Shown one piece after another: positions 39,239 to 63,858 of a stretch of DNA of 64,000 nt. The DNA lies in the NCBI GenBank assembly GCA_905182255.1, contig CAJJAH010000002.1, positions 186,001 to 250,000 of the forward strand, written 5' to 3'. Position numbers and translations under genes: made by a program. The stretch's first letter is position 1. Every line of letters begins with the position of its first letter. The notes below the pieces were generated by a model. That model was not told the DNA's origin and made no database searches. It saw nothing but the letters and a program-made list of their open reading frames with translations. Source of the DNA: Cryomorphaceae bacterium BACL11 MAG-121001-bin54 (GTDB lineage: Bacteria > Bacteroidota > Bacteroidia > Flavobacteriales > BACL11).

Positions 39239-39246
39239 ATATCTAG

Positions 39247-39293
39247 TAGCGTGAGGGAGATTTGAACTCCCGACCTCAGGGTTATGAATCCTG
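39247..39293 (-). tRNA. 3' half of a tRNA-Met(CAT) gene (attachment-site remnant)
   Basis: Read on the minus strand, the sequence has anticodon loop TTCATAA (39288-39282, anticodon CAT), 3' anticodon stem CCCTG, variable loop AGGTC, T arm GGGAG-TTCAAAT-CTCCC, acceptor strand TCACGCT and discriminator A. It fits standard tRNA numbering from position 27 to 73. The D arm and 5' acceptor strand are missing: upstream DNA is unrelated AT-rich sequence. A 3' tRNA piece next to an integrase gene is the usual footprint of integration into a tRNA gene. CCA is not encoded. Confidence 0.75.
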
Positions 39294-39558: not shown

Positions 39559-40785
39559 ATGGCATCAATATCACCAATTATCAGAGAAGAAAGAGTAAGT
39601 AAAGGCCTTGTTCCTATTTCGATAAGGGTTACAGTAGATAGAAGAAAGAGTAATATTTCTCTCGGACATAGAATTAAAATTCAGGATTGGGATGATGAAA
39701 AGAAAAGAGTAAGAAAATCTCATACAAACTCTGTAAGGTTAAATAATATTATCCAAAATTATATTAGTAAAATTGATAATTATATTCTTCAGAAAGAAGC
39801 CCAAAATGAAATGGTAAATTTTGATGAAATAAAGGAAAAGGTGTTCAATAAATCAATCACATCAGATACTTTTAAGGAATACTCTTTAAATTACTTAGAA
39901 GAATTATTTATCGCCAAAAAGTTTTCTCAGCACGGCTCAAGTGTAGCACAAATAAATAAAATGGTTCTCTTTTATGGTGATTACGCTAAGTTTTCTGCAA
40001 TTACAATAAATAGCATTCAAAAATTTAAAGGAGTGCTTAAATCACAATACAATCTATCTGAGAGAAGTATTGTCAATCATCTTATTGCTCTTAGGGCAAT
40101 TTGCAATAAAGCAATCAGAGATGGGCTAATGAATAAAAATAAATATCCATTTGGTGGTGACGGGATTATTATCCGAATACCCAGTAGTATAAAGGTAGGC
40201 TTAAACCTTGAAGAGATTAAATTATTAGAAGATGCTAAAATAAAACCCTTTACAACAAAATGGCATGCAAGAAATGCCTTCCTCCTCTCCTTCTATTTTG
40301 CTGGAGCACGAATATCTGATGTTATTCGAATTAAGTGGTCTGATATTGTTGATGGACGCTTACAATATGTAATGGGGAAAAATAATAAAATAAGTTCCGT
40401 GAAGATCACATCTAAAGCAAAAGTGATTTTAGACCAGTATAAGGCCGTTAAAGTAGATAATGAAGCATTTGTATTGCCAGAGTTAAATAAACCAAATATA
40501 GACACTGAAAATGCTACATATAAGAAAATACGATTTGCTACTAAAAAATATAATAATTGGCTCAAACGATTAGCGAAAGAAGTTGGTATAGAGAAGAAAG
40601 TAACATGTCATATTGCTCGTCACTCATTTGGAAATATTTCGGGAGATAAAATTCCAATACAAATGCTTCAGAAACTTTACCGTCATAGCGACATAACTAC
40701 CACAATTAATTACCAACAAGCATTCATCAATAAAGATACTGATGATGCTTTGGAAGCTGTAATTGGAAATGATAATGATAAATAA
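39559..40785 (+). CDS. Tyrosine-type site-specific integrase
   Basis: The 408-residue protein has an N-terminal arm-DNA-binding domain (LVPISIRVTVDRRKSNISLG, about 17-70), a SAM-like core-binding domain (about 105-205) and the catalytic domain. Active-site residues are visible: Arg in FAGARISDVIRIKW, the HxxR box in CHIARHSFGN, His in YRHSDITTT and the nucleophile Tyr in INYQQ. It lies 265 nt from a tRNA-Met 3' fragment and points away from it, into the accessory region, as expected for an element inserted at that tRNA. No conjugation or phage structural genes follow. Confidence 0.93.
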   Translation: MASISPIIREERVSKGLVPISIRVTVDRRKSNISLGHRIKIQDWDDEKKRVRKSHTNSVRLNNIIQNYISKIDNYILQKEAQNEMVNFDEIKEKVFNKSITSDTFKEYSLNYLEELFIAKKFSQHGSSVAQINKMVLFYGDYAKFSAITINSIQKFKGVLKSQYNLSERSIVNHLIALRAICNKAIRDGLMNKNKYPFGGDGIIIRIPSSIKVGLNLEEIKLLEDAKIKPFTTKWHARNAFLLSFYFAGARISDVIRIKWSDIVDGRLQYVMGKNNKISSVKITSKAKVILDQYKAVKVDNEAFVLPELNKPNIDTENATYKKIRFATKKYNNWLKRLAKEVGIEKKVTCHIARHSFGNISGDKIPIQMLQKLYRHSDITTTINYQQAFINKDTDDALEAVIGNDNDK

Positions 40786-46829: not shown

Positions 46830-47819
46830 TTATGCTGATATCAGCTTTTGTTGTAAATATTCTTGTCTTCTTTTTTGTATTGATTTAAGCTTGGTTTCCT
46901 TCCTTCTTTTGAGGATTTTTTCTTCTCTCCCAAAATAGACATCAGAAGGAGTTACGTTGCTCAAAGATTCATGATATCTTTCATTATTGTAATACTCTAC
47001 CCAGTCGTTTATTGCATTTTCTAACTCTGATGGACTGTAATAATGATGCAGTTTTACAATATTTTTCATAGATCTGTGATACCTCTCTATCTTTCCTTGG
47101 GTTTGAGGATGATTAGGTTTCCCCCTTACATGTCCCATTCCTATGTCTGATAAATAGGATTTTAACTCATTAGAGATATAACAACTTCCGTTATCAGATA
47201 GTAATCTTGGAAGTTCTTTTTCTTCCAGATTTGCATTGTAAATTGCAGTATCAATACTTCTTTTTACATCCTCAGTTTTCATTCTTTCACAGAGTTCCCA
47301 ACTCACAATATACCTGGAGTAATCATCCATAATAGTGGACAAATAATACCAACCATAATTTTTGATTTTAAAGTAGGTAAAGTCAGTCTGCCATTGTTGA
47401 TGTACTCTTGAGGGTTGGTCTTTAAACTTCTTTGAAGCAGCCATTACAATATAGGCTGGAGTAGTTATCAAGCCTCTTGTTTTTAGTATTCTATAAACAG
47501 AAGACTCAGAAATGAAATATCCTCTCTCATCTGTGATGTGTGCAGCTAACTCTCTTGGAGATAATTCAGGTCTTTCTAATGCAACTTTAACCGTTTTATC
47601 AATTAGTTTATCTGGTATTTTATTCCAGAACTTACTTCTTTTTCTCTCTTTAGGAGCAAGGCCATCAAAACCATTTTCATGGTATCTACCGTACCATTTA
47701 TAGAATGTACTGGAGTGAATATTCAACTCCTTAAGAGTAGGTTTTACGCCCAGTTCTGAACCTTCTACTATTTTGATAATCTCCATCTTTTCTTCTTGTT
47801 TGTATCTTCTATATTTCAT
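46830..47819 (-). CDS. IS3-family transposase OrfB (DDE integrase core)
   Basis: The 329-residue protein has an N-terminal helix-turn-helix region (SSTFYKWYGRYHENG), an HTH_21-like segment, and an rve integrase core. The DDE residues are seen in WQTDFTYFKIKNYG, LLSDNGSCYISNE and TQGKIERYHRSMKN. It catalyses strand cleavage and transfer. It lies in the -1 frame relative to orfA and has its own ATG 2 nt after the orfA stop, so it may be made separately as well as by frameshifting. Confidence 0.93.
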   Translation of the reverse strand: MKYRRYKQEEKMEIIKIVEGSELGVKPTLKELNIHSSTFYKWYGRYHENGFDGLAPKERKRSKFWNKIPDKLIDKTVKVALERPELSPRELAAHITDERGYFISESSVYRILKTRGLITTPAYIVMAASKKFKDQPSRVHQQWQTDFTYFKIKNYGWYYLSTIMDDYSRYIVSWELCERMKTEDVKRSIDTAIYNANLEEKELPRLLSDNGSCYISNELKSYLSDIGMGHVRGKPNHPQTQGKIERYHRSMKNIVKLHHYYSPSELENAINDWVEYYNNERYHESLSNVTPSDVYFGREEKILKRRKETKLKSIQKRRQEYLQQKLISA

Positions 47820-47821
47820 CC

Positions 47822-48169
47822 CTATTTTTCTGAAGTGTTGTTTTTTTTCAGAACCCTAAGTTCTAAACTTACCTCCTTAAACATATGGGTAAGTTCTTCA
47901 TTTTCTCTCTTAAGTTTCTTCACATCAGAAGTGTTTGCTTCTCTTAAAGTATCTCCTTGCAATCTATGTTTTCCAGCTTCCATAAAGTCCTTACTCCACT
48001 TGTAGTATGTTGCAGGTGTTATCCCGTGATTCCTGCAAATCTGAGCGATAGACTCTTCATGTTTAAATCCTGCCAATACAACTGCTATTTTCTCCTCAGA
48101 GTTGTATCTCTTTCTTGTCTTTCTTTTAAGTTCTTTTATGAACTTCATTGCGTTTTCTTTGTCTTTCAT
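47822..48169 (-). CDS. IS3-family transposase OrfA
   Basis: The 115-residue protein has an HTH_Tnp_1 domain (RYNSEEKIAVVLAGFKHEES, SIAQICRNHGITPATYYKW) followed by a leucine-zipper-like helix (LKRENEELTHMFKEVSLELRVLKK), as in other IS3 OrfA proteins that bind the terminal repeats. Near its 3' end, A AAA AAC in the reading frame (47846-47840) is a classic -1 slippery heptamer. No stop codon intervenes in the -1 frame before orfB, so an OrfAB fusion can be made. Confidence 0.9.
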   Translation of the reverse strand: MKDKENAMKFIKELKRKTRKRYNSEEKIAVVLAGFKHEESIAQICRNHGITPATYYKWSKDFMEAGKHRLQGDTLREANTSDVKKLKRENEELTHMFKEVSLELRVLKKNNTSEK

Positions 48170-48430: not shown

Positions 48431-49678
48431 TTAAAAGGAGAATTTACCCATAACTGCCTGCATATCTTCAGCTACTTTATCATCAGACATTTTAGCATAA
48501 ATTTGAGTAGTTTTAATATTAGCATGACCCATCATTTTTTGAATACTTTCAAGAGGTATTCCATTTCGCAAAGTAACTGTTGTACCAAAAGTATGGCGAG
48601 CAGAATGGTAAGTTAAGTTCTTATTGACTCCCGCCAATTTAGCAATCTCTTTTAAGCTCTTATTCATATAGGAATTAGAAAAAGAAGGGAACACTAATTT
48701 CTTTAAGCGTTCAATTTCTGGAGCTGAATGCTTCTGTTTAGTAGGAATAAAAACATCTTCATACTTATCGTAAATAACTTTTGCAGCATTGAGCAAAGGA
48801 ATATTAGTAGTACTTCCTGTTTTCTCCCTATAAGTCATTATCCATGACATCCCAGAAGAATCTAGCTCATACTCATCCTTCTTTAGTTTTTTAATATCAC
48901 AATAGGATAAGCCAGTGAAACAAGAGAACACATACATATCCCTAATTGGACTTAAAACATCACTCAACTGAATCTTAATCAATTTTGAAAGTTCAATATC
49001 AGTTAAGAAAGTCCTATCAACTTTTTCAAAATTATTCTTAAAATTAGCAAATGGGTCATGCGGCATCCATTCATTCCTTTTAGCTAAACTGCATATCTTT
49101 TTTAAACGCACAAAGTTCTTGGCAACTCCATTTTTTGAATTTCCAGTATGTAAAAAAAGATAGTGCTTAAATTTTTGGAGGAAATCATATTTCACCTTCA
49201 TAAGTGGATAATCACTTTTACTATACTGATGCTTAATAAATCGTTCAAGATGCCCATAGGTCATCTTATGATTCTTATGTGTCCCTCTCTTATAGTCGAC
49301 TCCAATAAGACTAAACATATCCTCATTATGCTTTTTATAAACTCCAAGTATCATATTCATAGCTCCAAGCTCGCCAAAGGCAACTTTTGCAATCTTCTTA
49401 GCTGTTATCTCTTCAAAGGACATTTTAAGCTCATCAAAAGCTTGGTGTATTTTCAATTCCCACTCATTTATGTGATTATTTAGCACATCTTCATCCTCAC
49501 AATCAACAACCTTAGAATGCGACTTTGACCAACAATTTAGGGCAACATATAGTTTTAATGAAAAACGGAAAAATTCACCCTTGTGATGTATCTCCATATA
49601 AATAGGGTACAAACCATTAGTCCTTTGCTTACCCTTGTATAGAAACTTTCTTATTCTTATTATATTGGTCATTTTCAC
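48431..49678 (-). CDS. Tyrosine integrase, IntDOT/CTn-like
   Basis: The 415-residue protein has an N-terminal arm-type domain (RKFLYKGKQRTNGLYPIYM), a SAM-like core domain (about 115-215) and a catalytic domain with HSARHTFGTTVTL (HxxR), MMGHANIKTTQIYAKM (His and the nucleophile Tyr). At the usual position of the first catalytic Arg it has FTGLSYCDIKKLKK, i.e. Ser, as in integrases of Bacteroides conjugative transposons such as IntDOT. It lies 475 nt from a tRNA-Pro 3' fragment and points away from it. Confidence 0.92.
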   Translation of the reverse strand: MKMTNIIRIRKFLYKGKQRTNGLYPIYMEIHHKGEFFRFSLKLYVALNCWSKSHSKVVDCEDEDVLNNHINEWELKIHQAFDELKMSFEEITAKKIAKVAFGELGAMNMILGVYKKHNEDMFSLIGVDYKRGTHKNHKMTYGHLERFIKHQYSKSDYPLMKVKYDFLQKFKHYLFLHTGNSKNGVAKNFVRLKKICSLAKRNEWMPHDPFANFKNNFEKVDRTFLTDIELSKLIKIQLSDVLSPIRDMYVFSCFTGLSYCDIKKLKKDEYELDSSGMSWIMTYREKTGSTTNIPLLNAAKVIYDKYEDVFIPTKQKHSAPEIERLKKLVFPSFSNSYMNKSLKEIAKLAGVNKNLTYHSARHTFGTTVTLRNGIPLESIQKMMGHANIKTTQIYAKMSDDKVAEDMQAVMGKFSF

Positions 49679-50656: not shown

Positions 50657-51109
50657 CTATTCAAAGAGAAAAACTTGCTGCTTTTTCATATACGATAATG
50701 TGAATTTTTCTGTCGAAATTTTCAACACTTTAATTCCGTATTTTTCATCCCCTACTCCCATTACAAATTGTTCGTTATTTATAGTAATAATAATTAGTTT
50801 TTTACGCTTACTTTTTACCGTTCCTTTATATTGAATTTCTGGCCAAATAACTTTCTGTATTTTTTTCGGTTTTATTTTTTGTTTTACTGCTTTATTTTTC
50901 GATTTTCTTTTTCGTAAAAACGGATCGTTATATTCCAACAATAAAACTGGCTTTTCAATTACTTGCTTAGGGATAATATTATTACGGATTACAGCTAACT
51001 GAACAGGCTCTGTATTATCAGCTGTTATTTCCCAAAAACGAAAGGCAACTATAGCCCAAACAATCAAGGTTAAAGGTAAAAGGAAATATACATTCTTTAT
51101 AACTTTCAT
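50657..51109 (-). CDS. GspC/PilP-like inner-membrane protein (last gene of secretion operon)
   Basis: The 150-residue protein has one N-terminal membrane segment (VYFLLPLTLIVWAIVAF), a basic linker (RKRKSKNKAVKQKIKPKK), and a small C-terminal domain: IQYKGTVKSKRKKLIIITIN, NEQFVMGVGDEKYGIKVLKI and EKFTLSY. This order is that of GspC and PilP, whose periplasmic homology-region domain links the inner-membrane platform to the secretin. It follows the lipoprotein gene by 1 nt. Sequence similarity is weak; position in the operon and architecture carry the call. Confidence 0.65.
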   Translation of the reverse strand: MKVIKNVYFLLPLTLIVWAIVAFRFWEITADNTEPVQLAVIRNNIIPKQVIEKPVLLLEYNDPFLRKRKSKNKAVKQKIKPKKIQKVIWPEIQYKGTVKSKRKKLIIITINNEQFVMGVGDEKYGIKVLKISTEKFTLSYMKKQQVFLFE

Positions 51110-51110
51110 T

Positions 51111-51755
51111 TTACTGCACTATAAATGTTCTTAATTCTGAAGTTGCACCTGTTCCTTGTTGATTAAAAATTTGTACTTGCCATTTATACCGTCCTTCTGC
51201 TAAAGAATAAGCAAAACTATCAACAGATAATATAACATCAACCAAAGGGCTATTATTGGTATCTAACAGTTGGAAATTATATAATTCAGCATTGTATAAA
51301 CTCTCCCAGCTAAATACTTGCATACCAATAGCAGTTGTGTCGTTATTATAGGGGCTTAGTAATAATACTGTATCCTGCAATACTTCCAAAATGCTATCCA
51401 CTTGCAATGCTCTTTTGGTATAAGGTGTTTCGCTACTGCCATTTACTGCCTTTACTCGCCAAGTAAATTCTGAAGAGTATAAGGTATGGTTAAATTTTGC
51501 ATTAGGAATAAGAGTATCCAAAACAACTTTCTCCAAACTCTCCCAACTGGGTGACGCTATTTGCAAGCGATATTCTAAAGCTCCTTCTACTTCCTCCCAA
51601 AGAAATTCATGAACTATTTCAGTTGTAAGTAAATTATCTTGTGGTGTTAATAATTTTACCTTTTGTTGCTGTAAATCTATTTCAAAAATATCAGTACATG
51701 AAAGTGCAAAAGAACAGAGTAAAACAGTGAATAGGTAAGTAGTCTTATTTTTCAT
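51111..51755 (-). CDS. Lipoprotein with fibronectin III-like repeats in secretion operon
   Basis: The 214-residue protein has a lipoprotein signal (TVLLCSFALSCTD). Two FN3-like repeats follow: VHEFLWEEVEGALEYRLQIA ... FTWRVKAVNGSSE (about 45-115) and QVFSWESLYNAELYNFQLLD ... YKWQVQIFNQQGTGATSE (about 140-210). It overlaps the GspM/PilO-like gene by 11 nt, so it is an integral operon member. It could be a pilotin-like or surface accessory component; classical T2SS pilotins have a different fold, so no function is assigned. Confidence 0.65.
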   Translation of the reverse strand: MKNKTTYLFTVLLCSFALSCTDIFEIDLQQQKVKLLTPQDNLLTTEIVHEFLWEEVEGALEYRLQIASPSWESLEKVVLDTLIPNAKFNHTLYSSEFTWRVKAVNGSSETPYTKRALQVDSILEVLQDTVLLLSPYNNDTTAIGMQVFSWESLYNAELYNFQLLDTNNSPLVDVILSVDSFAYSLAEGRYKWQVQIFNQQGTGATSELRTFIVQ

Positions 51756-52263
51756 TTTTCTTTATATTTTGTATGCAAATAGTTGTTAGTAGTTGAATCC
51801 TTTTTGTTTTTTTATTTTTTACTTTCTTAAAGAACAAAGAAGCTATGCTTCCTTGCTGTTTTTCTTCTAATTCTTCAATTAATTTTAAGGTATTTGAAAA
51901 AGAACCTTCAATGGTTATTTTATCAATCAATAATAAATACTCCCCTTTTTGCTGTACTAACTGTTTAGGAATATCTGAAATATTAAGTTTAAATCTTTGA
52001 CCTATTTCAGTAATTATAGCCAATAAATCTTCTTGCTTATTTGCATAAGAAATATGACCATCCAACATTAACAGTTGTGCTTTCATTTGCTTAATCTTCT
52101 CAGGAGATTCTTGTTTTAAAAGCAATTGTTGTTCTTGAATATCGGAAAGTTGAATAAGCTTTATCGTTTTTTTAAATGACAATTGATAAGCTACCAACAC
52201 AAGAAACACTACCAGTAGTAACAGTGCCTTGTTTTTATTTTTATAGGTCCAGTTAGCTGTCAT
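51745..52263 (-). CDS. GspM/PilO-like inner-membrane assembly protein
   Basis: The 172-residue protein has a short cytoplasmic N-terminus, one membrane helix (ALLLLVVFLVLVAYQLSF), a helical coiled-coil region (IQEQQLLLKQESPEKIKQMKAQ) and a small alpha/beta ferredoxin-like domain (LLLIDKITIEGSFSNTLKLI ... LFFKKV). This is the architecture of PilO and GspM, partners of PilN and GspL. It overlaps both neighbours by 11 nt. Assignment rests on architecture and position. Confidence 0.68.
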   Translation of the reverse strand: MTANWTYKNKNKALLLLVVFLVLVAYQLSFKKTIKLIQLSDIQEQQLLLKQESPEKIKQMKAQLLMLDGHISYANKQEDLLAIITEIGQRFKLNISDIPKQLVQQKGEYLLLIDKITIEGSFSNTLKLIEELEEKQQGSIASLFFKKVKNKKTKRIQLLTTICIQNIKKNEK

Positions 52264-53287
52264 GAATTAATACTTTAATTTCAAAATCTCCAACTTTACT
52301 TTCTTGCTTAAACCCCTCAATGCTTACTGACTCAATAAAATCAATAGCACTTAATTCTTTTATCCAAGCACTTAATAGTTTAGCAGAAGCATTTCCTTTA
52401 ATTAGTAATACTCCTTTTCGAAACACTCCTTTTTGTTTTGGGTATTCGGGTTGGATTACCCACTGCTGAAGAGAAAGTGAGGTTGGAATCGTTTCCGCTA
52501 TCCTGTCCGCATAATAGGAAAGTTCATATTTATTTTGTTCCCCTACTTCATTCAGGAGTGATTGCTGCTTATTTATTTCCTCAACTAACACATTCATTTC
52601 TTGCCGCTCAGCTTGATAGGTTAACAATTCGGAACTTAATTGATTAGTTGCCTCAGTATAATATATGAACAGTAAAAAATTGATGAGCAATGAAATGAAA
52701 AATACAATTCCAGTACCTCTAACACCATATTTAAATAACTGTTTATGCTTTGCTTCATTCGCCTTATTTTTCGCTAAACCCTCTCCTATTGGCTTGTGCC
52801 AATAAGCTATAGCTGATGCTTTGGAAAGCGAACTATCAGCAATGTAATTTTGAGCTGTTGTTCCTAACATTATATTTACAACATCAAAGCCCATTTCTTC
52901 AAATAAGGATATATATTCTTTTATTTTTTCGTTACGGATGATAAACACCCATTTTTCAGCATCAGATATTGGCACTTCTTCTATATAAAAATGCTGCATA
53001 TCGGCATTTGGCAATACGGAATCTAAAGTCTGTTCCTTGGGCACATCAACAGCTACTTTTCTTTTTATAAGTTGTGCTGTATTTATTGAAATAGAAAAAG
53101 GAGTATGCCTCCATACATCCAACATTTCATGAATAGGAATGGCTGGAAAATTATTCAGCTGCTGAAATTCTCCTTTAACCCTCTCAACAGTAGTTAGGTT
53201 TATCCTCAATTCCCCTTCAGGAGAAGAAAATAGTTCTGCTCCATGAATTTTTGGAGCATATAAAAGGTATTTTAATTTAGCAAACAT
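52253..53287 (-). CDS. GspL/PilN-like inner-membrane assembly protein
   Basis: The 344-residue protein has an N-terminal cytoplasmic region (about 1-185) that may be a degenerate actin-like (PilM/GspL cytoplasmic) domain, one membrane segment (GIVFFISLLINFLLFIYY, about 194-211), then a coiled coil (LLTYQAERQEMNVLVEEINK) and a ferredoxin-like domain (LLIKGNASAKLLSAWIKELS, FIESVSIEGF). This single-chain PilM-PilN arrangement is that of GspL, which recruits the GspE ATPase. It overlaps the secretin stop codon by 1 nt (TAATG). Confidence 0.7.
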   Translation of the reverse strand: MFAKLKYLLYAPKIHGAELFSSPEGELRINLTTVERVKGEFQQLNNFPAIPIHEMLDVWRHTPFSISINTAQLIKRKVAVDVPKEQTLDSVLPNADMQHFYIEEVPISDAEKWVFIIRNEKIKEYISLFEEMGFDVVNIMLGTTAQNYIADSSLSKASAIAYWHKPIGEGLAKNKANEAKHKQLFKYGVRGTGIVFFISLLINFLLFIYYTEATNQLSSELLTYQAERQEMNVLVEEINKQQSLLNEVGEQNKYELSYYADRIAETIPTSLSLQQWVIQPEYPKQKGVFRKGVLLIKGNASAKLLSAWIKELSAIDFIESVSIEGFKQESKVGDFEIKVLIHDS

Positions 53288-55167
53288 TAGTAATACACTG
53301 TAGGTTTAATAAAAATATTTAGCTTGTTTTTAGTTCTTGCTTTGGTTCTGCTACTAAAAAACCATTTAATAACAGGAATTCTTGAAAACCAAGGTAAACC
53401 ACTTCCGCTATCACTAATTTTCTTTTCTTCCAGCCCTCCTAACAAAACCATCTCTCCATCCTTTACCCTTATTAAAGAACTGAAATTACGGGATACTGTT
53501 CCTGGTGGTGCATCAGGAGAAATACGAGCTGTAAAATCAGATTGATTCACCTCAATTTCTAATGTAATTTGATTGTCTCCTGAAACAATAGGCTTTACTT
53601 TTATTGACATATCCGCTTTTACTGATTTGTAATGTTTTGTAATGATATTTTGAGGGTTTTGTGAGCCAATTACATTGTTTGTTTCCTCTAAATAGTACTC
53701 AGTATTTCCAATACTCATTGTTGCCTCATGACTATTAAGTGCCGCTAATTTTGGAGTAGAACGCACTTTAACTACACCATTGTCCTCCATAGCTTTTAGG
53801 CTCATGTAAAAACTTTGGTTCACTTTTCCTAAATTCATTAGCCCAAAACCATTGAAGCTATTTATTAGTTGATTGATTGAATTCGCGTTTAACTGGAAAT
53901 CTACCCCAGGATATAAAGCCCCTCCTGTTATTATATTTTCTCCTCCTCCCAAATGAGCCGTCATACCCAATGAAGCTGAACTGGTGCTATTATAATCCAC
54001 TATCATTACCTCAATAAGTATTAGAGGTACAACTTGGTCAATCTCTTTTATAAAAGCCTTTAATTCAATAATTTTTGGTTGTGAACCACTAAGTATTAAA
54101 GAATTTTGTTCAGAAAACTCTTTAATGCTTACTTCTTTTTTAAGTTCAGCAGGAATGATTTCTATTACATCCTTTACAGTTCGGTATTGTAATTTTACAA
54201 CTTCTGTATTTCTTAATCCTTCTGATTTTCGGTCTCCAATTAAATAAATACCTTCCTTTTTACTAAAAGTATATTCTGTACCACTAAGCATATAGGTTAG
54301 CAACTCATCAATATTTGCCGCTCGCATGCTTAAGGTTAAATCTCCTTTTAGGTTAGTGGCAATAAAATAGTTGAGATTTAACTGCCTTGCTGTTTCCTGT
54401 ACTACTCCTGACAAACCCTGCTTATATGCCTCAATATAAACCCTACCAAGCGTATCAACCTCAATGCTTAACTCAGTAGTATTTTTATACTTTGCATTTG
54501 TTTTTTTGGTACTACTACTATTTTTTGCAGGAGATGATTTCTTTTCAATTACATAATAGCCATCATCAGAAATTCTTGCTTGCAAATCATTAGAAAATGC
54601 TAATTTTTCAATAGCACTTTTAAAAGGTTTTTCCTGAATATATACGGACACTAACTTATCAGATAACCCTGGTGCTAAAATTACATTATGCCCACTAATT
54701 TGAGTAATCGCTTTTACTACTCTTTGCAAGGAATCTTTCTTTAAATCCAAGGTAAGTGTATCGGCTAAAAATTGAATTCCTAAAGACTTAGGAACATAAG
54801 GTATAATTACTTTTTCAGGAATAAATTTACTTACTGAAATAATATTTCCTACAATGGTTAAATCCAGTTCGTATTCTCGGCACAAGAACAATAATACATC
54901 TGTTACTCTAACATTCGAGAATGTATTTGTAATGCTAATATTCAACTCTGGTGAGATGCTAATATTTACTCCATTAGCAACTGCCAAAGCATTAATAAAT
55001 TCTTTGATATTTACCCTACTTACTGATAATTCCACTGGTTTTTCAAGACCTGGATTATCAATAATCAATGTTTCTAATTGATTGTTTAATTGTGTAATCC
55101 TATCCTGAGCAATTGCTGTTGTATGGATAAAGATTAACAAATAAAATAAGTATTTCAGTTTTTTCAT
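53287..55167 (-). CDS. gspD: Type II/IV-pilus secretin
   Basis: The 626-residue outer-membrane channel protein has a signal peptide (cut after TTAIAQ), an N0/STN-type domain (VNIKEFINALAVANGVNISI, about 52-110), further N domains (KPFKSAIEKLAFSNDLQARI; VVQETARQLNLNYFIATNLK; VVKLQYRTVKDVIEIIPAEL), and the secretin core (about 395-626) with VKDGEMVLLGGLEEKKISDS and LPWFSRIPVIKWFFSSRTKA, the conserved secretin signature. It would form the outer-membrane pore through which substrates or pseudopili pass. The stop overlaps the next gene's start, and the start overlaps gspE by 4 nt. Confidence 0.9.
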   Translation of the reverse strand: MKKLKYLFYLLIFIHTTAIAQDRITQLNNQLETLIIDNPGLEKPVELSVSRVNIKEFINALAVANGVNISISPELNISITNTFSNVRVTDVLLFLCREYELDLTIVGNIISVSKFIPEKVIIPYVPKSLGIQFLADTLTLDLKKDSLQRVVKAITQISGHNVILAPGLSDKLVSVYIQEKPFKSAIEKLAFSNDLQARISDDGYYVIEKKSSPAKNSSSTKKTNAKYKNTTELSIEVDTLGRVYIEAYKQGLSGVVQETARQLNLNYFIATNLKGDLTLSMRAANIDELLTYMLSGTEYTFSKKEGIYLIGDRKSEGLRNTEVVKLQYRTVKDVIEIIPAELKKEVSIKEFSEQNSLILSGSQPKIIELKAFIKEIDQVVPLILIEVMIVDYNSTSSASLGMTAHLGGGENIITGGALYPGVDFQLNANSINQLINSFNGFGLMNLGKVNQSFYMSLKAMEDNGVVKVRSTPKLAALNSHEATMSIGNTEYYLEETNNVIGSQNPQNIITKHYKSVKADMSIKVKPIVSGDNQITLEIEVNQSDFTARISPDAPPGTVSRNFSSLIRVKDGEMVLLGGLEEKKISDSGSGLPWFSRIPVIKWFFSSRTKARTKNKLNIFIKPTVYY

Positions 55168-56561
55168 TCTTGGTGTAATAATATTGGATAGACTTCTTCA
55201 AAAGTTGTTTTTCCTTGCATTAATAATTTAAGTGCACTTTCAGCCAATGCATTTTTTCGTTTTCCTTCCCATTGTTGGTCTTTAATACTTTCCGAGAGTT
55301 TTTCATCAATAGGCAATACATCATAAATTGCTTTTCTTCCTTTATAGCCTGTATAATGACATTGAGAACAACCCACTGCCTTGTACTGATGGCTTAATGT
55401 AACTTGAGAGAAAGCAGCAGGCAACATTTCTTTTTGAAAAACCTCTTTATGTTTACATTCAGGGCAAAGCAAACGCAACAAGCGTTGAGCAACCGATAGG
55501 TTAAGCGTATCCGCTATTAAAAAAGAAGGAATACCCATATCAATTAATCGAGCAATGGTACCCCATGCTGAATTGGTGTGTATTGTTGATAATACCAAAT
55601 GACCCGTAAGTGCAGCACGAATTGCCATCTGTGCAGTTTCAGCATCCCGAATCTCCCCTACCATTACTATATCAGGGTCCTGTCGTAAAAAGGTACGCAA
55701 TGCTTTAGGAAAATCTAAGCCTATATCTTCTTTCAATTGTACCTGATTGATTCCTTCTAAAGTATATTCTATGGGGTCTTCAATGGTTAAAATATTTACA
55801 TCCTTTTGGTTGAGTTGCTTTAGGCTTGCGTACAATGTGGTTGTTTTACCTGAACCTGTTGGTCCACTAATTAAAACCAAGCCTTGTGTTTTTTTAATTC
55901 CTTGAAGGTAGCCTGCTAATTGTTCCTGCTGAAATCCTAACTGCTCAAGATCCACTTGTTTTGCACTTTTACTCAGTAGCCTTAGCACTACTTTCTCACC
56001 AAAATGAGTAGGTAAAATAGAAACTCGAATATCCAAATCAAGAATTTTAAGGGTTATTCTCCCATCCTGAGGCAATCTTTTTTCAGCAATATCGAGCATT
56101 GCCCTAATTTTAATTTTATTTACCAAAGCAGGATAATCCGATTTTGGAATACTGTAACGCTCCATGAGTTTACCGTCCAAACGCATACGCACCCTGCACC
56201 TTTCATTGTAAGATTCAATATGAATATCACTACAGCCTATGGCATGGGCTTCCTTTATGAGTTCTTCAAAAAAATCGCTACCCGATAACTGATTTGTTTT
56301 TTCGTACTTTCTATAATGTTTTGCTAAGGCCTTTTTTATAAGGGGTGCAGGAGATTTTTCTAAACTTATGTTTTTTCCTAAGAGAGCTTCTAACTCATAT
56401 TTTATAGTGGATGTATCGGCAGTATCCTCTATTAAAAAAGTAATATCCCCATTGTGCTGATATTTGGGTATAATGCCAAAATGATGCGCCTGCTGAGCAG
56501 TAATTAATTGCAGCAGTTCTACTTCAATATCTTCTAATTGATGGTTCATAATGGAATCCAA
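55164..56561 (-). CDS. gspE: GspE/PilB-type secretion or pilus-assembly ATPase
   Basis: The 465-residue cytoplasmic ATPase powers pseudopilus assembly. Visible motifs: GCSDIHIESYNERCRVRMRLDG (N2 domain), LISGPTGSGKTTTLYASL (Walker A, about 231-248), the Asp box TIEDPIEYTLEG, RQDPDIVMVGEIRDAETAQ (Walker B and His-box region), LVLSTIHTNSA, and four zinc cysteines in LLCPECKH (366 and 369) and GCSQCHYTG (398 and 401) typical of extension ATPases rather than PilT. It overlaps the prepilin-peptidase gene by 16 nt. Confidence 0.95.
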   Translation of the reverse strand: MDSIMNHQLEDIEVELLQLITAQQAHHFGIIPKYQHNGDITFLIEDTADTSTIKYELEALLGKNISLEKSPAPLIKKALAKHYRKYEKTNQLSGSDFFEELIKEAHAIGCSDIHIESYNERCRVRMRLDGKLMERYSIPKSDYPALVNKIKIRAMLDIAEKRLPQDGRITLKILDLDIRVSILPTHFGEKVVLRLLSKSAKQVDLEQLGFQQEQLAGYLQGIKKTQGLVLISGPTGSGKTTTLYASLKQLNQKDVNILTIEDPIEYTLEGINQVQLKEDIGLDFPKALRTFLRQDPDIVMVGEIRDAETAQMAIRAALTGHLVLSTIHTNSAWGTIARLIDMGIPSFLIADTLNLSVAQRLLRLLCPECKHKEVFQKEMLPAAFSQVTLSHQYKAVGCSQCHYTGYKGRKAIYDVLPIDEKLSESIKDQQWEGKRKNALAESALKLLMQGKTTFEEVYPILLHQE

Positions 56562-57016
56562 TTTAACTCTGTTGCTACTAAACTAAGCATCCAACTCATT
56601 GCTAAGAAACCAGCAAAAGGGATGGGATAATTTTTTTCCTTATTGAAATAAATAATAGGTAAGGACACTAATAATGCAAATACAGCAGCAAAAAGTATGA
56701 GCAGTAAAAAATGTAAAGGTGGGAAAGCCGCACACATCACGCAAATGAATAACACATCTCCTTTTCCTAGAGCATAGTCAATAAATTGATGCGACTTTCC
56801 GTACCTTAAACTGTGATAACCTTTTATTAATAACAGTTGTATTATCCATAGTGCATTATTTGTAAAAAAACTCATTGTCCAATTTTGCCATGTATTGTCC
56901 AATAGCTGATAATAAGCAGCAGCAACAAACAAGATTGGAAATAAATACCAAGCGATAGCACGGTATTTAAAATCCTGATAGACAAAGGCTGATAAAATAC
57001 TACTGAGCACTATCAT
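56546..57016 (-). CDS. Prepilin peptidase (A24 family, short form)
   Basis: The 156-residue integral membrane protein has about five hydrophobic segments. The two catalytic aspartates of A24 aspartyl proteases are seen in VYQDFKYRAIAW (first Asp, about residue 14) and YALGKGDVLFICVMCAAFPP (GxGD motif). It lacks the N-terminal methylase domain with paired CxxC found in PilD, like TadV/CpaA-type or archaeal-type enzymes. It should cleave the pseudopilin encoded 1 nt upstream at its Gly-Phe junction. Confidence 0.85.
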   Translation of the reverse strand: MIVLSSILSAFVYQDFKYRAIAWYLFPILFVAAAYYQLLDNTWQNWTMSFFTNNALWIIQLLLIKGYHSLRYGKSHQFIDYALGKGDVLFICVMCAAFPPLHFLLLILFAAVFALLVSLPIIYFNKEKNYPIPFAGFLAMSWMLSLVATELNWIPL

Positions 57017-57017
57017 C

Positions 57018-57419
57018 CTAATCTTTTTGAGTTTCTAACAATTTCTTATCCTGATCTATAACCCAGACATTGTACTTTCCATCTCCATCAAAATCAACCA
57101 CAGCTGTTGCTGTTGCTGTAAAACCTTGTGTATTTGCTTCAGTAATTTCAATTTGGTAGTTAGCACTCCCCTTTACCGTTACTAAGGCAATTTGTTCAAA
57201 ACCTAATTCATCAAAAGAATCGCTATAGCGAGAATGTAAATAGAAATGATTCTTTTCTAATGTATAAAGGTGTTCCAGTTGTAATTGTGCTTCTGTACTT
57301 TTAGCACGAGAGATAAGTGGCATTAAACTGGGCAAAGCCATCAGCACCAATATACCAATAATTACGAGTACTACCAATAGCTCCGCTAAGGTAAACCCGT
57401 TGAGTTTGTGTTGTTTCAT
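57018..57419 (-). CDS. gspG: Type II pseudopilin (GspG-like)
   Basis: The 133-residue protein has a class III signal: MKQHKLNG|FTLAELLVVLVIIGILVL, with Phe+1 and Glu+5 followed by a hydrophobic helix. The globular part ends with VVDFDGDGKYNVWVIDQDKK, resembling the calcium-binding loop of major pseudopilins. It is the first gene of the leftward operon and lies 1 nt from its processing peptidase. No minor pseudopilin genes are present in the window. The 173-nt gap to the divergent Rhs gene should hold its promoter, but I find no clean TAnnTTTG box. Confidence 0.88.
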   Translation of the reverse strand: MKQHKLNGFTLAELLVVLVIIGILVLMALPSLMPLISRAKSTEAQLQLEHLYTLEKNHFYLHSRYSDSFDELGFEQIALVTVKGSANYQIEITEANTQGFTATATAVVDFDGDGKYNVWVIDQDKKLLETQKD

Positions 57420-57592
57420 ATCATTTGCGTTTTGATTTGGCTAAACTCTGTAATAAAACATTATGAATTCAGGACACTACAAGGCCTTTTAGGACAATGA
57501 CACCAAAAACAATGTGTTGTATGTATGGCTATTTTGTGTACTTTAGTAGCACAAAAAATCAGTACATTTTTAACCAAAATAGTATAATTTTA

Positions 57593-58564
57593 ATGCATTT
57601 TTCAAGCCAAAACACAGCTAACACTCTGAATATCAAAGGCGATTACTATCCTTTCGGAAGTTTGAAACCATTAAGACATTCAGGGTCAAATAATTATAGG
57701 TTCAGTTTTAACGGTATGGAGGTTGATAATGAGGTAAAAGGCGATAATAATAGTTTAGATTTTGGAGCTCGTATTTATGACCCAAGAATTGGGAGGTTTT
57801 TGAGTATTGACCCAGCTTTTAACGAATATCCCTCAATATCTCCTTATACTGGACTTGGAAATAATCCATTGGTTTTTATTGATCCAGATGGGAAGAGATT
57901 GTATTTTGTTGGCGGGGCAGGAAATGATGCCAAAGGATGGAATTACATTAATAGGTTTAAAAGAATATTTACTCAAAAGGGAATTAAAGGCTTTACTAGA
58001 ATTAATGCTTCTGGAGGTGTAAATAAAGATATTGCATTCACAGCCACCTATAAGAATTTTTCTCATATCGGAAATCAATTAGTTAAGTCTGGTTCAGTTC
58101 TTGAGGTGAAATTAAAACGTAGAGATCATAAACAAATTGAAAAAGCAGTAAATGATATAATGATTGATCTTCAAAATAATCCACTAAAAGAAGGAGAGCA
58201 ATTGAATTTAGCAGGTTATAGTTATGGTAGTGTGTTGCAAGCTAATGTTGCTTTACAATTGGCAGATAAAGGTGTTAAAGTAGATAATCTTATTTTAATT
58301 GGTAGTCCAATATCTGATAAATCAGAACTGTTTAAAGCTTTAAATTCAAATAAGAATATTGGAAAAGTAATTAGAAAAGATATACCAGGTGATAAGTTAA
58401 GTAATCCACAATCAAATTGGGATTTCTTTGAAGGAGGTAAGCAAAACCTTGATCCAAATGATAAAGGTGTGGGACCTCATTTTGATTATGCAAGGCCAGG
58501 AACTGAAACAGATAGGAAAATAGGACAGTTAGGGGATGAACTTAAGAAAAATGGAGTAGAGTAA
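57593..58564 (+). CDS. Short Rhs-core protein with alpha/beta-hydrolase toxin tip
   Basis: I start at the ATG at 57593 (MHFSSQNTANT). Residues about 14-100 are the end of an RHS core: GDYYPFGSLKPL, NNYRFSFNGMEV, FGARIYDPRIGRFLSIDP and YTGLGNNPLVFIDPDG. After this junction comes a unique tip (about 103-323) with LNLAGYSYGSVLQANVALQL, a GxSxG nucleophile elbow, and later GPHFDYA as a possible catalytic His, suggesting a lipase/esterase-type toxin. No YD-repeat body exists upstream, so this is an orphan cassette. Its stop overlaps the ATG of a small membrane-protein gene (TAATG), the likely immunity gene. It is divergent from the secretion operon. Confidence 0.82.
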   Translation: MHFSSQNTANTLNIKGDYYPFGSLKPLRHSGSNNYRFSFNGMEVDNEVKGDNNSLDFGARIYDPRIGRFLSIDPAFNEYPSISPYTGLGNNPLVFIDPDGKRLYFVGGAGNDAKGWNYINRFKRIFTQKGIKGFTRINASGGVNKDIAFTATYKNFSHIGNQLVKSGSVLEVKLKRRDHKQIEKAVNDIMIDLQNNPLKEGEQLNLAGYSYGSVLQANVALQLADKGVKVDNLILIGSPISDKSELFKALNSNKNIGKVIRKDIPGDKLSNPQSNWDFFEGGKQNLDPNDKGVGPHFDYARPGTETDRKIGQLGDELKKNGVE

Positions 58565-58836: not shown

Positions 58837-58866
58837 GAAATAGTATGGCAATTACTTTAGCTGTAA

Positions 58867-59314: not shown

Positions 59315-59324
59315 CTAGAATAAC

Positions 59325-59332
59325 TATCTTTA
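59325..59332 (+). promoter_or_regulatory. -7 promoter box TATCTTTA of the second Rhs cassette
   Basis: TATCTTTA is followed by CATC and the ATG at 59337 (4-nt spacing). The box and start region are nearly identical to those of the cassette starting at 63829 on the other strand. Confidence 0.5.
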
Positions 59333-59336
59333 CATC

Positions 59337-60188
59337 ATGCAAGTAGCCCTTAAAAATAGCACTTTTTCCTATCCTTTCGGGTCGCTCAAAGCTAGTAGAA
59401 ATGCAAGCACGAGTAATTATAGGTTCAGTTTTAACGGGCAAGAGGGCACTGATGAGCTAAGTGGTGTAGGAAACCATACTACTGCTACTTTTTGGGAATA
59501 TGATACACGCCTTGGAAGAAGGTGGAACTTAGATCCTGTTATAAAATATGGGCAATCTGGTTATAGTACATTTGCTAATAATCCAATATGGTTTATTGAC
59601 CCTAATGGTGCTGATAGTTTAAAGTTTGATGCGGGCGGAATGTATACTGGTCAAGTAAAAGCAGAAGGTGATCATGTTGGGCAGTTAGCTGATGGAACAA
59701 CTTTTTCTTTTGCTGACCAAAGCTGGGGAGATAAATTTACTACTGACGAATATCCACAAGAAAGTGATGGGAAAGGTTTTAATAGTATTTTTGTTGTCCC
59801 TGATAAAGATATTGCAGGAATATTAGAAGGTTCAGGAGTAAACGATAAAAAAAATATAATAAGTAAATATTATTATGCCTTAACAGAAAGTAGAGGAAAT
59901 GATAAAAAAATGGATTTTGTAAATAACTCCAAAGTAAAAAAAATGGTTAAAGAAAATCGATACTCATTGTTTATGACTAAAGGGGAAAAAGATAATATGG
60001 CTCATGATACTTTCAATTTTGGAAATTTTATGTGGGGAGCAGGAATGAGTAAATTGAAAATCCCTTACATAGATGCTGTAATAGGGGGTTATATTGATAA
60101 TATGTATCATCATGGGTTAGAATTAGATTCTAAAGATGATCAGAGGTCAATTAAGGCTGGGTATAAATGGAATTATGAAAATAAATAA
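59337..60188 (+). CDS. Short Rhs-core protein with toxin tip (Toxin_44-like)
   Basis: The 283-residue product starts MQVALKNSTFSYPFGSLKAS and contains the RHS-core end (NYRFSFNGQEG, WEYDTRLGRRWNLDP, YSTFANNPIWFIDPNG) in residues 1-98. The tip (about 99-283) contains MAHDTFNFGNFMWGAGMSKL and YIDAVIGGYIDNMYHHG near its end; the FNFGNFMWG.A pattern resembles polymorphic toxin type 44, but this is by eye only. It has its own -7 box 4 nt before the ATG and is followed 4 nt later by a lipoprotein gene, the likely immunity partner. Confidence 0.8.
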   Translation: MQVALKNSTFSYPFGSLKASRNASTSNYRFSFNGQEGTDELSGVGNHTTATFWEYDTRLGRRWNLDPVIKYGQSGYSTFANNPIWFIDPNGADSLKFDAGGMYTGQVKAEGDHVGQLADGTTFSFADQSWGDKFTTDEYPQESDGKGFNSIFVVPDKDIAGILEGSGVNDKKNIISKYYYALTESRGNDKKMDFVNNSKVKKMVKENRYSLFMTKGEKDNMAHDTFNFGNFMWGAGMSKLKIPYIDAVIGGYIDNMYHHGLELDSKDDQRSIKAGYKWNYENK

Positions 60189-60192
60189 TTAA

Positions 60193-60735: not shown

Positions 60736-60825
60736 TTGATATTTTGGAATTTATTGTAATCTAAATTATTGCCTTTAGGTTTTCATTATTCTTTTTAACT
60801 AAGTATTCTATTTACTTTAAATAAT

Positions 60826-61156: not shown

Positions 61157-62266
61157 ATGAAAATTATTATTAGAAAAAAGGATAGAGTCCTTAATCAAGA
61201 GGCTTTTTTAGTATTGCTAACTGATTTTATAAAAGATACAGCAGCAGGAAGGAGAACCAAAAGTAATGGCTCTTTAATTAGTCATTCTACAGTAGAGAAC
61301 TACATACATATGAAAAGGTTAGTACAGAACTTTAGCAAGCAATCTACCTTTGAGATAAAGCTCTATTTGGTAAATAATTTGAACCAAGCAGAAAAAGAAA
61401 ATGCGCATAAATACTATAGGAAACTTTATATTGCTTTTACAAACTATATGTATGATGACCTTAATTATTTTGATAATTATGTAGGCAATGTAATCAAATG
61501 CTTAAAAGCATTTTTTAATTACTTGATAAAAGAAAGAAGTATAGAAATTGGAAACTATCACAGGTTATTTTATGTGCCTCATGAGGAGATTCCTATCATA
61601 GCCTTAAACAGAGAGCAATTGAATTATGTAATAAATAATGCTACATTCAAACGCAAAGTAAAAGAAAACGATTTAGAGGTTGTTAGAGATGTTTTTATCT
61701 TTGGTTGTACTGTTGCCCTCCGTGTCTCTGATTTATTGACCCTATCACCTAAAAACTTGGTAATACGAGATAATAAACATTACATTCAAGTTAAATCTCA
61801 AAAAACAAAGAAGAATACCGTTATAAAGTTGCCCGACTATTGTGTTACTATTCTTAGAAAATACAAAGGAAAACAAGAAACTTTATTGCCAAGTTGTAGC
61901 TTATTTTCTTTTAATTCAAAATTGAAGAAGATGGCTACTTTATTTCCTGATAATTTTGAGCTGGTAAAAACACGCGAGAAAAGAGGAAAACAAATTGTTA
62001 TTTATAAAAACCCAAAATTAAAAACGCATTATAAACTATCCGACCATATGAGTTCCCATGTTATGCGCAGGACAGGAATTACTACTATGCTTAACTTGGG
62101 AATGCCCGAATATATGGTAAGAAGAATTTCAGGGCATACTGCCAATAGTAAAGAATTCTTCCGCTATGTTCAACTCTCTCAAAACCTAGTAGATAAAGAA
62201 ACAGATAGAGTATTTGAACAATTAGCTATGAAGAATAATGTCAAAGTGGAAAACAGGAAGCAATAA
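61157..62266 (+). CDS. Tyrosine recombinase within the Rhs cassette array
   Basis: The 369-residue protein has an N-terminal core-binding domain (VENYIHMKRLVQNF; LNQAEKENAHKYYRKLYIAF) and a catalytic domain with Arg in CTVALRVSDLLTLSP, Lys in VKSQKTKKNTVIKL, HxxR in MSSHVMRRTGIT, His in RRISGHTANSKEFF and Tyr in RYVQLSQN. It differs from the two arm-domain integrases elsewhere in the window. A second, broken 3' copy lies at 63859-63981 next to another Rhs cassette. The start is preceded by a 31-nt inverted repeat. It may move or rearrange the toxin cassettes. Confidence 0.9.
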   Translation: MKIIIRKKDRVLNQEAFLVLLTDFIKDTAAGRRTKSNGSLISHSTVENYIHMKRLVQNFSKQSTFEIKLYLVNNLNQAEKENAHKYYRKLYIAFTNYMYDDLNYFDNYVGNVIKCLKAFFNYLIKERSIEIGNYHRLFYVPHEEIPIIALNREQLNYVINNATFKRKVKENDLEVVRDVFIFGCTVALRVSDLLTLSPKNLVIRDNKHYIQVKSQKTKKNTVIKLPDYCVTILRKYKGKQETLLPSCSLFSFNSKLKKMATLFPDNFELVKTREKRGKQIVIYKNPKLKTHYKLSDHMSSHVMRRTGITTMLNLGMPEYMVRRISGHTANSKEFFRYVQLSQNLVDKETDRVFEQLAMKNNVKVENRKQ

Positions 62267-62797: not shown

Positions 62798-63829
62798 TCA
62801 ATCTCTAGATGATGCAGGATTAACACTACCTTTTATTGTTCCAGCGCCTTTCATTAGTGATCCCTGATCAGGGTTTCCAAATACATTAGGACTACCACTA
62901 CTAGCTGGATTATACGTTTTTTGGGTTCTGCTCTTCGCTAAACCTACAGCATCTTTTCCTGATATGAAATTATTAATATCTTTTGCAATATTACCTACTT
63001 GGTCATTATCAATTGAACGGTGATTTGAACCAGGAGAAAGTATATTAGCACCATTTGTTGCATTATTCAAAATATCTATCCTTTCACCACCTACAGCTTC
63101 AGTGGTTTGATAATAATTAATAACATTTTTCACATTTGAAGTAATATTATTATCATCAATTCCATACGGCTTGGGATCTTGTGTGTCAATTAAAATCAAT
63201 AAATCAATTTGTAGACTAGGATTATCTTTAGCAAGCTCTACAGCATTATCACCTCCACCACTATGACCGACTATAATAACCTTACTGCCAGAATTAGCGG
63301 TTTTAAATGCTTGGATAGTTATTTTAACATCATTTTTAGTATTTTCTGTTGAAGATGAGGAATAGGTAACTACCTGAATGTCTGTCCTTCCTTTTGCTGC
63401 TTGTGCAATCTTTCCTAAACCTGTCATATCTAAACCTCCATTAGCTGGATCATATTGAGCTTGTGTTTTTCCATTCTTTGGGTCGACCCCATAACCTTGT
63501 AAAATAAGAATTAATGTTCCTGTATTCGGATTAGCTGTAGCAGGCTCAAGTCCTTCAAGATCAAAAGCAGCGATTGGGCTATTTCCTGCATATTGATACG
63601 GAGATAGCGCTGCAAATTGTTTAGACAATGGATCAACCGATTTATATCTACCCAATCTTGTATCATAACTTCTAAACAAATGCTCTTGAGCATTTCCTTC
63701 TTCTGAAATCTCATTCGCGTTCTCTGCTCCAATAAACCCAAATCTATACTCATTACCACCAGAGTACCTAAGAGGTTTTAGTGACCCGAAAGGATAGGAA
63801 TATGGGCTATTTTTAAGGGCTACTTGCAT
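62798..63829 (-). CDS. Short Rhs-core protein with alpha/beta-hydrolase toxin tip
   Basis: The 343-residue product starts MQVALKNSPYSYPFGSLKPL, with RHS-core end motifs EYRFGFIGAEN, RSYDTRLGRYKSVDP and SPYQYAGNSPIAAFDLEG up to about residue 93. The tip (about 97-343) is an alpha/beta hydrolase: KVIIVGHSGGGDNAVELAKD provides the GxSxG nucleophile, LILIDTQDP a possible acid and SNHRSIDNDQ a possible His, so a lipase or related esterase toxin is likely. It is unlike the hydrolase tip at 57593. It has its own -7 box 4 nt before the ATG. A lipoprotein gene follows. Confidence 0.82.
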   Translation of the reverse strand: MQVALKNSPYSYPFGSLKPLRYSGGNEYRFGFIGAENANEISEEGNAQEHLFRSYDTRLGRYKSVDPLSKQFAALSPYQYAGNSPIAAFDLEGLEPATANPNTGTLILILQGYGVDPKNGKTQAQYDPANGGLDMTGLGKIAQAAKGRTDIQVVTYSSSSTENTKNDVKITIQAFKTANSGSKVIIVGHSGGGDNAVELAKDNPSLQIDLLILIDTQDPKPYGIDDNNITSNVKNVINYYQTTEAVGGERIDILNNATNGANILSPGSNHRSIDNDQVGNIAKDINNFISGKDAVGLAKSRTQKTYNPASSGSPNVFGNPDQGSLMKGAGTIKGSVNPASSRD

Positions 63830-63833
63830 GAGG

Positions 63834-63841
63834 TAAAGATA
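63834..63841 (-). promoter_or_regulatory. -7 promoter box TATCTTTA of the minus-strand Rhs cassette
   Basis: The minus-strand TATCTTTA is followed by CCTC and the ATG at 63829: the same box and 4-nt gap as at 59325. Confidence 0.5.
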
Positions 63842-63858
63842 GAAATATTATCAAGAGA

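What the first reader, a model, noticed from the sequence alone, without database searches (positions are those of the whole stretch)
50657..57419. Eight-gene type II-like secretion operon without GspF, divergent from the Rhs array
Pseudopilin, prepilin peptidase, extension ATPase, secretin, GspL/PilN-like, GspM/PilO-like, lipoprotein and GspC/PilP-like genes are packed with gaps of 1 nt or overlaps. The platform protein GspF/PilC, essential in known type II systems and type IV pili, is missing, as are minor pseudopilins. Either gspF is elsewhere, or this is a reduced machine. The divergent neighbour is a toxin gene array with no visible export signals, so the operon may be its exporter; that link is inference from position only.
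Basis: partly seen in the sequence, partly recalled or inferred. Interest (0 to 1): 0.62.

Follow-up and report, generated by a model that had tools for sequence, protein, structure and literature searches.

The report
Bacteroidota secretion operon beside switchable toxins
The eight genes are the standard core of a known type II protein-export machine of Bacteroidota bacteria, whose missing part normally lies in a separate gene cassette; across many genomes this machine sits beside giant Rhs toxin genes, which makes those toxins its likely and so far unrecognised cargo.

Summary
The eight-gene operon is real. Its order (gspG, prepilin peptidase, gspE, gspD, gspL, gspM, lipoprotein, gspC) matches the core of the known Bacteroidota T2SS. 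It is not a reduced machine. In relatives gspF travels with the minor pseudopilins in a second cassette, upstream of gspG, downstream of gspC, or elsewhere in the genome. In the nearest relatives that cassette lies downstream of gspC; here that spot holds decayed DNA, a tyrosine recombinase and an IS3 element. The genome is a 53% complete MAG, so absence of gspF cannot be proven.

All 21 other T2SS+ genomes sampled in the order carry Rhs-core genes. The T2SS lies within 20 kb of one in 15 of 20, against 2 expected (P about 1e-12); a restriction-gene control gives 0 of 20. Full-length Rhs neighbours carry Sec signal peptides; the window's Rhs genes are orphan C-terminal tips.

New here: a recombinase (61157-62266) found only in T2SS+ genomes, between convergent Rhs tips with inverted repeats, suggesting an invertible toxin-tip switch. 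The module sits on an island interrupting tRNA-Met, absent from congeners.

The parts
57018..57419 (-). gspG, major pseudopilin (133 aa, GFTLAE processing site, Glu5)
   Evidence: N_methyl E 4.5e-7; motif
56546..57016 (-). prepilin peptidase (A24, short form, GxGD motif present)
   Evidence: Peptidase_A24 E 1.2e-5; motif
55164..56561 (-). gspE, secretion ATPase (465 aa)
   Evidence: T2SSE E 1.3e-126; Walker A, His box, CxxC pairs
53287..55167 (-). gspD, secretin (626 aa)
   Evidence: Secretin E 1.3e-36, STN, Secretin_N
52253..53287 (-). gspL-like: actin-like cytoplasmic domain, TM helix, periplasmic ferredoxin-like domain in one chain
   Evidence: AlphaFold model; Foldseek and VIA match to EpsL, GspL, PulL, XcpY; PilN in 22 of 28 family members
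51745..52263 (-). gspM/PilO-like inner-membrane protein (172 aa)
   Evidence: family profile to PilO 3jc8 E 0.0021; conserved position
51111..51755 (-). conserved T2SS-locus lipoprotein; two beta-rich repeat domains here, three in relatives
   Evidence: lipobox; alignment of 25 members
50657..51109 (-). gspC-like protein: TM helix plus homology-region domain
   Evidence: model; Foldseek to GspC/PulC HR and PilP; T2SSC in 4 of 24 members
48431..49678 (-). XerD-like tyrosine recombinase at the place where nearest relatives carry the GspK-like, minor pseudopilin and gspF cassette
   Evidence: XerD E 1e-21; comparison of gene orders
46830..48169 (-). IS3-family transposase genes (orfA 47822-48169, orfB 46830-47819)
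   Evidence: transpos_IS3
57497..58564 (+). orphan Rhs C-terminal tip 1 (Rhs core then alpha/beta-hydrolase-like tip), divergent from gspG by 78 nt
   Evidence: TIGR03696 E 6.6e-15; Pfam
59337..60188 (+). orphan Rhs C-terminal tip 2
   Evidence: TIGR03696 E 2.5e-7
61157..62266 (+). tyrosine recombinase of a family found here only in T2SS+ genomes, between convergent Rhs tips; proposed tip switch
   Evidence: Phage_integrase E 3.5e-11
62798..63829 (-). orphan Rhs C-terminal tip 3, inverted relative to tips 1 and 2
   Evidence: TIGR03696 E 1.6e-9
59324..59393 (+). inverted-repeat arm (90% over 70 nt) at the start of tip 2
63773..63842 (-). inverted-repeat arm at the start of tip 3
57650..57900 (+). 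inverted-repeat arm of tip 1; partner is the fourth tip 1.0-1.3 kb beyond the window end, where the contig stops
   Evidence: 82% over 256 nt
39246..39293 (-). 3' remnant of a tRNA-Met gene interrupted near the anticodon: left edge of the genomic island
   Evidence: match to intact tRNA-Met of congener G008; no tRNA found in the window
39559..40785 (+). tyrosine integrase just inside the island edge
   Evidence: ORF and homology to the second recombinase

Best explanation
The operon encodes the core half of a Bacteroidota-type type II secretion system: ATPase GspE, GspL and GspM inner-membrane parts, a GspC-like connector, secretin GspD, major pseudopilin, its peptidase and a phylum-specific lipoprotein. 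GspF and the minor pseudopilins are normally encoded in a second, separable cassette. In this genome that cassette is either in the unassembled half or was displaced by mobile elements downstream of gspC. The machine lies on a genomic island interrupting tRNA-Met, together with Rhs tip genes and a tyrosine recombinase. Proposed working: a full-length Rhs/YD protein with a Sec signal peptide is exported to the periplasm and folds there; pseudopilus growth driven by GspE pushes it through the secretin; the recombinase inverts the segment between convergent tips, changing which toxin tip is fused to the full-length Rhs. Shown: gene content and order, intact motifs, GspL fold, location of gspF in relatives, co-occurrence and adjacency with Rhs/YD genes, signal-peptide-like starts on full-length Rhs neighbours, inverted repeats. 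Inferred: the substrate relation, the inversion, and that gspF exists in this organism.
For: Same gene order in dozens of Bacteroidota loci and in Cytophaga hutchinsonii, where D, F and G mutants have a phenotype (PMC5553014). gspF present in 20 of 21 other T2SS+ genomes of the order and elsewhere in 9 of 11 genomes whose locus lacked it. Rhs core in 21 of 21 other T2SS+ genomes of the order, against about 60 of 174 T2SS- genomes (Fisher about 2e-9), and in 44 of 45 T2SS+ genomes from a second collection spanning several orders. Within 20 kb in 15 of 20, 2.05 expected, P 1.3e-12; restriction-methylase control 0 of 20 (read by eye). Rhs/YD genes lie as little as 68-500 nt from T2SS genes in 14 loci. 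Full-length Rhs neighbours start with Sec-type signals. Recombinase family in 4 other genomes of 196, all T2SS+, near the T2SS, between convergent tips; inverted repeats that in most loci start at the same YYPFG codons. htpG on the same contig is 93% identical to a congener, so the contig is correctly binned.
Against: No secretion data. The C. hutchinsonii T2SS study found extracellular protein profiles hardly changed in mutants and proposed no Rhs substrate. Rhs genes are common without a T2SS in this order, so they do not need it. Both kinds of gene favour plastic islands, and T2SS+ genomes tend to be larger, so part of the association may be indirect. Related genomes are not independent. 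gspF is not found in the held half of this genome. Signal peptides were judged by eye. No alternative orientation of the tip segment was observed.
Confidence: 0.62

Rival explanations
1. A stranded, non-working fragment: the island lost the gspF and minor-pseudopilin cassette when the recombinase and IS3 element came in, and the remaining eight genes are on their way to decay.
For: Exactly the cassette found downstream of gspC in the nearest relatives is missing, and the spot holds decayed DNA, a recombinase and an IS3 element. The lipoprotein lacks its third domain and GspL is shorter than usual. No gspF in the held genome.
Against: All eight frames are open, tightly packed, with intact catalytic and processing motifs; only 53% of the genome is held, and cassettes far from the core occur in other genomes (for example G177, over 100 kb apart).
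Confidence: 0.2
2. The T2SS exports other substrates (enzymes, surface proteins); it sits near Rhs genes only because both are carried on genomic islands.
For: C. hutchinsonii T2SS mutants are affected in cellulose use and surface proteins. The window region is an island. Rhs occurs widely without T2SS.
Against: Co-occurrence is near complete (21 of 21 and 44 of 45), proximity far exceeds chance, another accessory gene class shows none, and several loci are direct neighbours in one direction (G143, G090, L017, L019, L020).
Confidence: 0.25
3. A type IV pilus or DNA-uptake machine rather than a secretion system.
For: PilN, PilO and PilP models match some family members weakly.
Against: GspL is a single chain with cytoplasmic and periplasmic halves as in T2SS, not separate PilM and PilN; best fold matches are EpsL, PulL and XcpY; the best matches of the last gene are GspC/PulC homology regions; no retraction ATPase gene is part of the conserved locus.
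Confidence: 0.06

Closest known systems
T2SS of Cytophaga hutchinsonii (CHU_3191-CHU_3202; Wang et al. 2017, PMC5553014)
   Same: Order G, peptidase, E, D, then GspL/M/C-like genes with one extra gene; the authors' remote-homology assignments agree with ours.
   Different: C. hutchinsonii has gspF and minor pseudopilins directly upstream of gspG; no Rhs link was reported and no direct substrate was identified.
Proteobacterial T2SS (Gsp, Eps, Pul, Xcp)
   Same: GspD, E, G, GspL fold, GspC homology-region-like domain, prepilin peptidase.
   Different: No gspF, H, I, J or K in the locus; a phylum-specific lipoprotein; short peptidase; different gene order.
Rhs polymorphic toxins (Zhang et al. 2012, PMC3482391)
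   Same: Rhs core followed by variable tips and small neighbouring genes that may be immunity genes; that survey labels signal-peptide Rhs toxins 'T2SS/Sec-dependent'.
   Different: That label rests on a signal peptide only, with no T2SS neighbourhood listed; the link to a T2SS locus and a dedicated recombinase was not found in the literature searched.
Tyrosine-recombinase invertible loci (invertons, shufflons)
   Same: A recombinase between inverted repeats flanking alternative gene ends.
   Different: Here the repeats lie at the Rhs core start and the alternatives are toxin tips; inversion itself was not observed.

Membership tests
Type II secretion system | Secretin (GspD) | tested here: met
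   Secretin 1.3e-36
Type II secretion system | Assembly ATPase GspE with intact motifs | tested here: met
Type II secretion system | Major pseudopilin and prepilin peptidase | tested here: met
Type II secretion system | GspL and GspC-like inner-membrane parts | tested here: met
   folds: GspL Z 12.7 and 10.8; GspC HR prob 1.00 with weak E
Type II secretion system | Platform protein GspF | tested here: inconclusive
   absent from the window and from the held 1.04 Mb of a 53% complete MAG; present in 20 of 21 other T2SS+ genomes of the order
Type II secretion system | Minor pseudopilins | tested here: inconclusive
   none in the window; in relatives they sit with gspF; the rest of the genome was not searched for them
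Type II secretion system | Secretes folded periplasmic substrates | not testable with these tools
   needs an experiment
Bacteroidota-type T2SS gene order | G-peptidase-E-D-L-M-lipoprotein-C | tested here: met
   identical order in relatives
Rhs polymorphic toxin tips (57497-63829) | Rhs-associated core domain | tested here: met
   TIGR03696 in three window genes, one just under the cut-off
Rhs polymorphic toxin, full length | N-terminal part with signal peptide and YD repeats | tested here: not met
   only tips are in the window; the contig ends inside a fourth tip
Invertible DNA switch | Recombinase with inverted repeats at both ends | tested here: met
Invertible DNA switch | Both orientations observed | not testable with these tools
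   no reads held

The most novel reading that the evidence does not exclude
The Bacteroidota T2SS is chiefly an exporter of Rhs/YD-repeat polymorphic toxins, and in a subset of loci a co-inherited tyrosine recombinase inverts a segment at the conserved YYPFG-coding site so that the exported toxin changes its tip: a secretion machine with a built-in toxin switch.
Probability: 0.42. Interest if true: 0.82.

Novelty: new variant of a known kind. Interest (0 to 1): 0.62.

Why it matters
No direct substrate of a Bacteroidota T2SS was identified in the papers read here, and the export route of signal-peptide Rhs toxins in this phylum is not established. Near-complete co-occurrence, tight linkage and direct adjacency join these two open questions and make both testable with single gene deletions in laboratory Flavobacterium strains. 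If the recombinase does switch tips, it would be a programmed way to change an exported toxin.

Tried and rejected
gspF hidden in the window: tblastn with about 40 relatives' GspF found nothing better than E 0.08. Remnants of the downstream cassette behind gspC: only a weak hit (E 0.02, 21% identity) to the small gene that follows gspC in L020, not relied on. Misbinned contig: rejected, htpG on the contig is 93% and 90% identical to congeners. Sequence search of the GspL-like and GspC-like families against solved structures gave no meaningful hit; folds were needed. Pfam gives no domain for the about 1900-aa YD-like neighbour family. PADLOC gave no defence-system hit for the recombinase or secretin. 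Papers on a T2SS-Rhs link or an Rhs inversion system in Bacteroidota: none found, within an open-access library only.

Full report
1. What is there. Eight minus-strand genes at 50657-57419 run gspG, A24 prepilin peptidase, gspE, gspD, gspL-like, gspM-like, lipoprotein, gspC-like, with gaps of 1 nt or overlaps of 1-16 nt. Pfam names gspE (1e-126), secretin (1e-36), N_methyl and Peptidase_A24. The rest were resolved by family profiles and structure. The 344-aa protein is a single-chain GspL: an AlphaFold model (mean pLDDT 84) matches the EpsL cytoplasmic domain (1yf5, Z 12.7, rmsd 4.0 over 153 residues) and the PulL periplasmic domain (5hl8, Z 10.8, rmsd 2.2 over 78). The last gene has a GspC-like homology-region domain (3oss, 6hcg; Foldseek prob 1.00, E 0.02-0.07), and 4 of 24 relatives hit T2SSC. 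The gspM-like family hits PilO weakly (E 0.002). Motifs needed for function are intact.

2. It is the Bacteroidota T2SS core. A scan of named genomes gave 49 loci. In most complete loci the same eight genes occur in the same order. It is also the order in Cytophaga hutchinsonii, where disruption of D, F or G impairs cellulose use (PMC5553014). So the operon is a member of a known kind.

3. The missing gspF. In relatives gspF follows two minor pseudopilins, and often a GspK-like protein of about 420 aa. This cassette lies upstream of gspG in many Flavobacteriaceae, or 2-3 kb downstream of gspC in the nearest relatives (L006, L016, L017, L020, L021), or far away. T2SSF is found in 20 of 21 other T2SS+ genomes of the order; the exception, G061, holds its T2SS on a 3.6-kb contig. 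In 11 genomes whose sampled locus lacked it or was cut short, 9 have it elsewhere. The window's genome is 53% complete and shows none. Downstream of gspC the window has decayed DNA, a XerD-like recombinase (48431-49678) and an IS3 element (46830-48169), so displacement or loss of the cassette is plausible, but a copy in the missing half is at least as likely.

4. The island. None of the 36 same-genus or same-family genomes searched has the secretin. The contig is correctly binned: htpG at 37185-39089 is 93% and 90% identical to congeners. About 150 nt after htpG the window matches the 3' part of a tRNA-Met of congener G008 and then departs from it inside the tRNA; ARAGORN finds no tRNA in the window. 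An integrase follows at 39559-40785. The T2SS, Rhs tips and recombinase therefore lie on an island of at least 26 kb running past the contig end.

5. Rhs association. In 196 genomes of the order 22, own included, have the T2SS. All 21 others carry the Rhs core, against about 60 of 174 T2SS- genomes (Fisher about 2e-9, computed with 61 of 175). In 45 T2SS+ genomes from the second collection, which spans several orders, 44 carry it. In 15 of 20 usable genomes a Rhs core lies within 20 kb of a T2SS part, 2.05 expected with every Rhs copy counted separately (P 1.3e-12); at 10 kb 12 against 1.25. T2SS extents in that script were entered by hand, some only approximately. The control, N6_Mtase, has no copy within 20 kb (read by eye from the listing). 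Rhs/YD-like ORFs lie in 34 of 52 fetched loci, and in 14 loci within 500 nt of a T2SS gene, for example 68 nt after gspC in L019, 143 nt after gspF in G143, 131 nt after the gspM-like gene in G090. Full-length Rhs neighbours (G155 3686 aa, G209 3919 aa, G084 3198 aa, two-gene forms in G090 and G143) begin with Sec-type signals (judged by eye). That is the expected entry route for T2SS cargo. Caveats: relatedness of genomes, genome size, shared preference for islands.

6. Why the window's Rhs genes lack signals. They are orphan tips: reading frames that start at or just before the conserved YYPFG codons of the Rhs core, followed by a variable tip such as an alpha/beta-hydrolase-like one, and by small genes that may be immunity genes. 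The contig ends inside a fourth, inverted tip. In G155 and G209 the matching place holds the full-length Rhs gene; by analogy the full-length gene here would lie beyond the contig end. This last step is inference.

7. The recombinase. The tyrosine recombinase at 61157-62266 has relatives (E below 1e-70) in T2SS loci of other genera. In a search of the order that was blind to T2SS it occurs in only four other genomes, all T2SS+, near the T2SS. In these four, in L046 and in the window it lies between Rhs tips that point toward it from both sides. DNA inverted repeats link the convergent tips: G155 172 nt at 97.7%, G209 167 nt at 88%, L046 286 nt at 95%, G126 41 nt at 100% ending at a contig end, window 70 nt at 90% and 256 nt at 82%. 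In most of them homology starts sharply at the codons for YYPFG; in the window's tips 2 and 3 and in L046 it extends further upstream. This fits an invertible tip switch, but no alternative orientation was seen.

8. Verdict. The operon itself is an ordinary member of a known phylum-specific T2SS with its second cassette not in view. No paper describing either was found in the searched open-access library; Zhang et al. 2012 label signal-peptide Rhs toxins as T2SS/Sec-dependent without neighbourhood evidence (PMC3482391).

Noticed in passing
window 39246-39293 and 39559-40785: tRNA-Met interrupted near its anticodon next to an integrase: left edge of a genomic island not shared by congeners; the right edge lies beyond the contig end.
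   Followed up: partly
window 44364-46775: 803-aa protein with a metalloprotease-like HExxH stretch and a T9SS C-terminal sorting domain, inside the island.
   Followed up: no
window about 50380-50510 (-): Decayed stretch downstream of gspC that reads like the end of a T9SS sorting domain, a possible pseudogene remnant; position approximate.
   Followed up: no
L017:1817-7387 (-): Three tandem genes sharing a 'QFKDNRPE' N-terminal motif, possibly eCIS-type effectors, directly upstream of a T2SS locus: a second kind of large toxin-like gene beside the machine.
   Followed up: no
L025, L028, L030, L033, L034, L035, L045, L047, L048; L085:1923-7631: A conserved YD-like protein (about 1900 aa where complete, 'GPSQPEF' N-terminus, no Pfam domain) lies 1.3-3 kb downstream of gspC in many Flavobacteriaceae T2SS loci; a candidate common T2SS partner or cargo.
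   Followed up: partly
window 51111-51755: The lipoprotein conserved in Bacteroidota T2SS loci has lost its third domain here; its role is unknown.
   Followed up: partly
window 41148-41969: Helicase-like ORF with weak PADLOC similarity to MkoC and MkoA.
   Followed up: no
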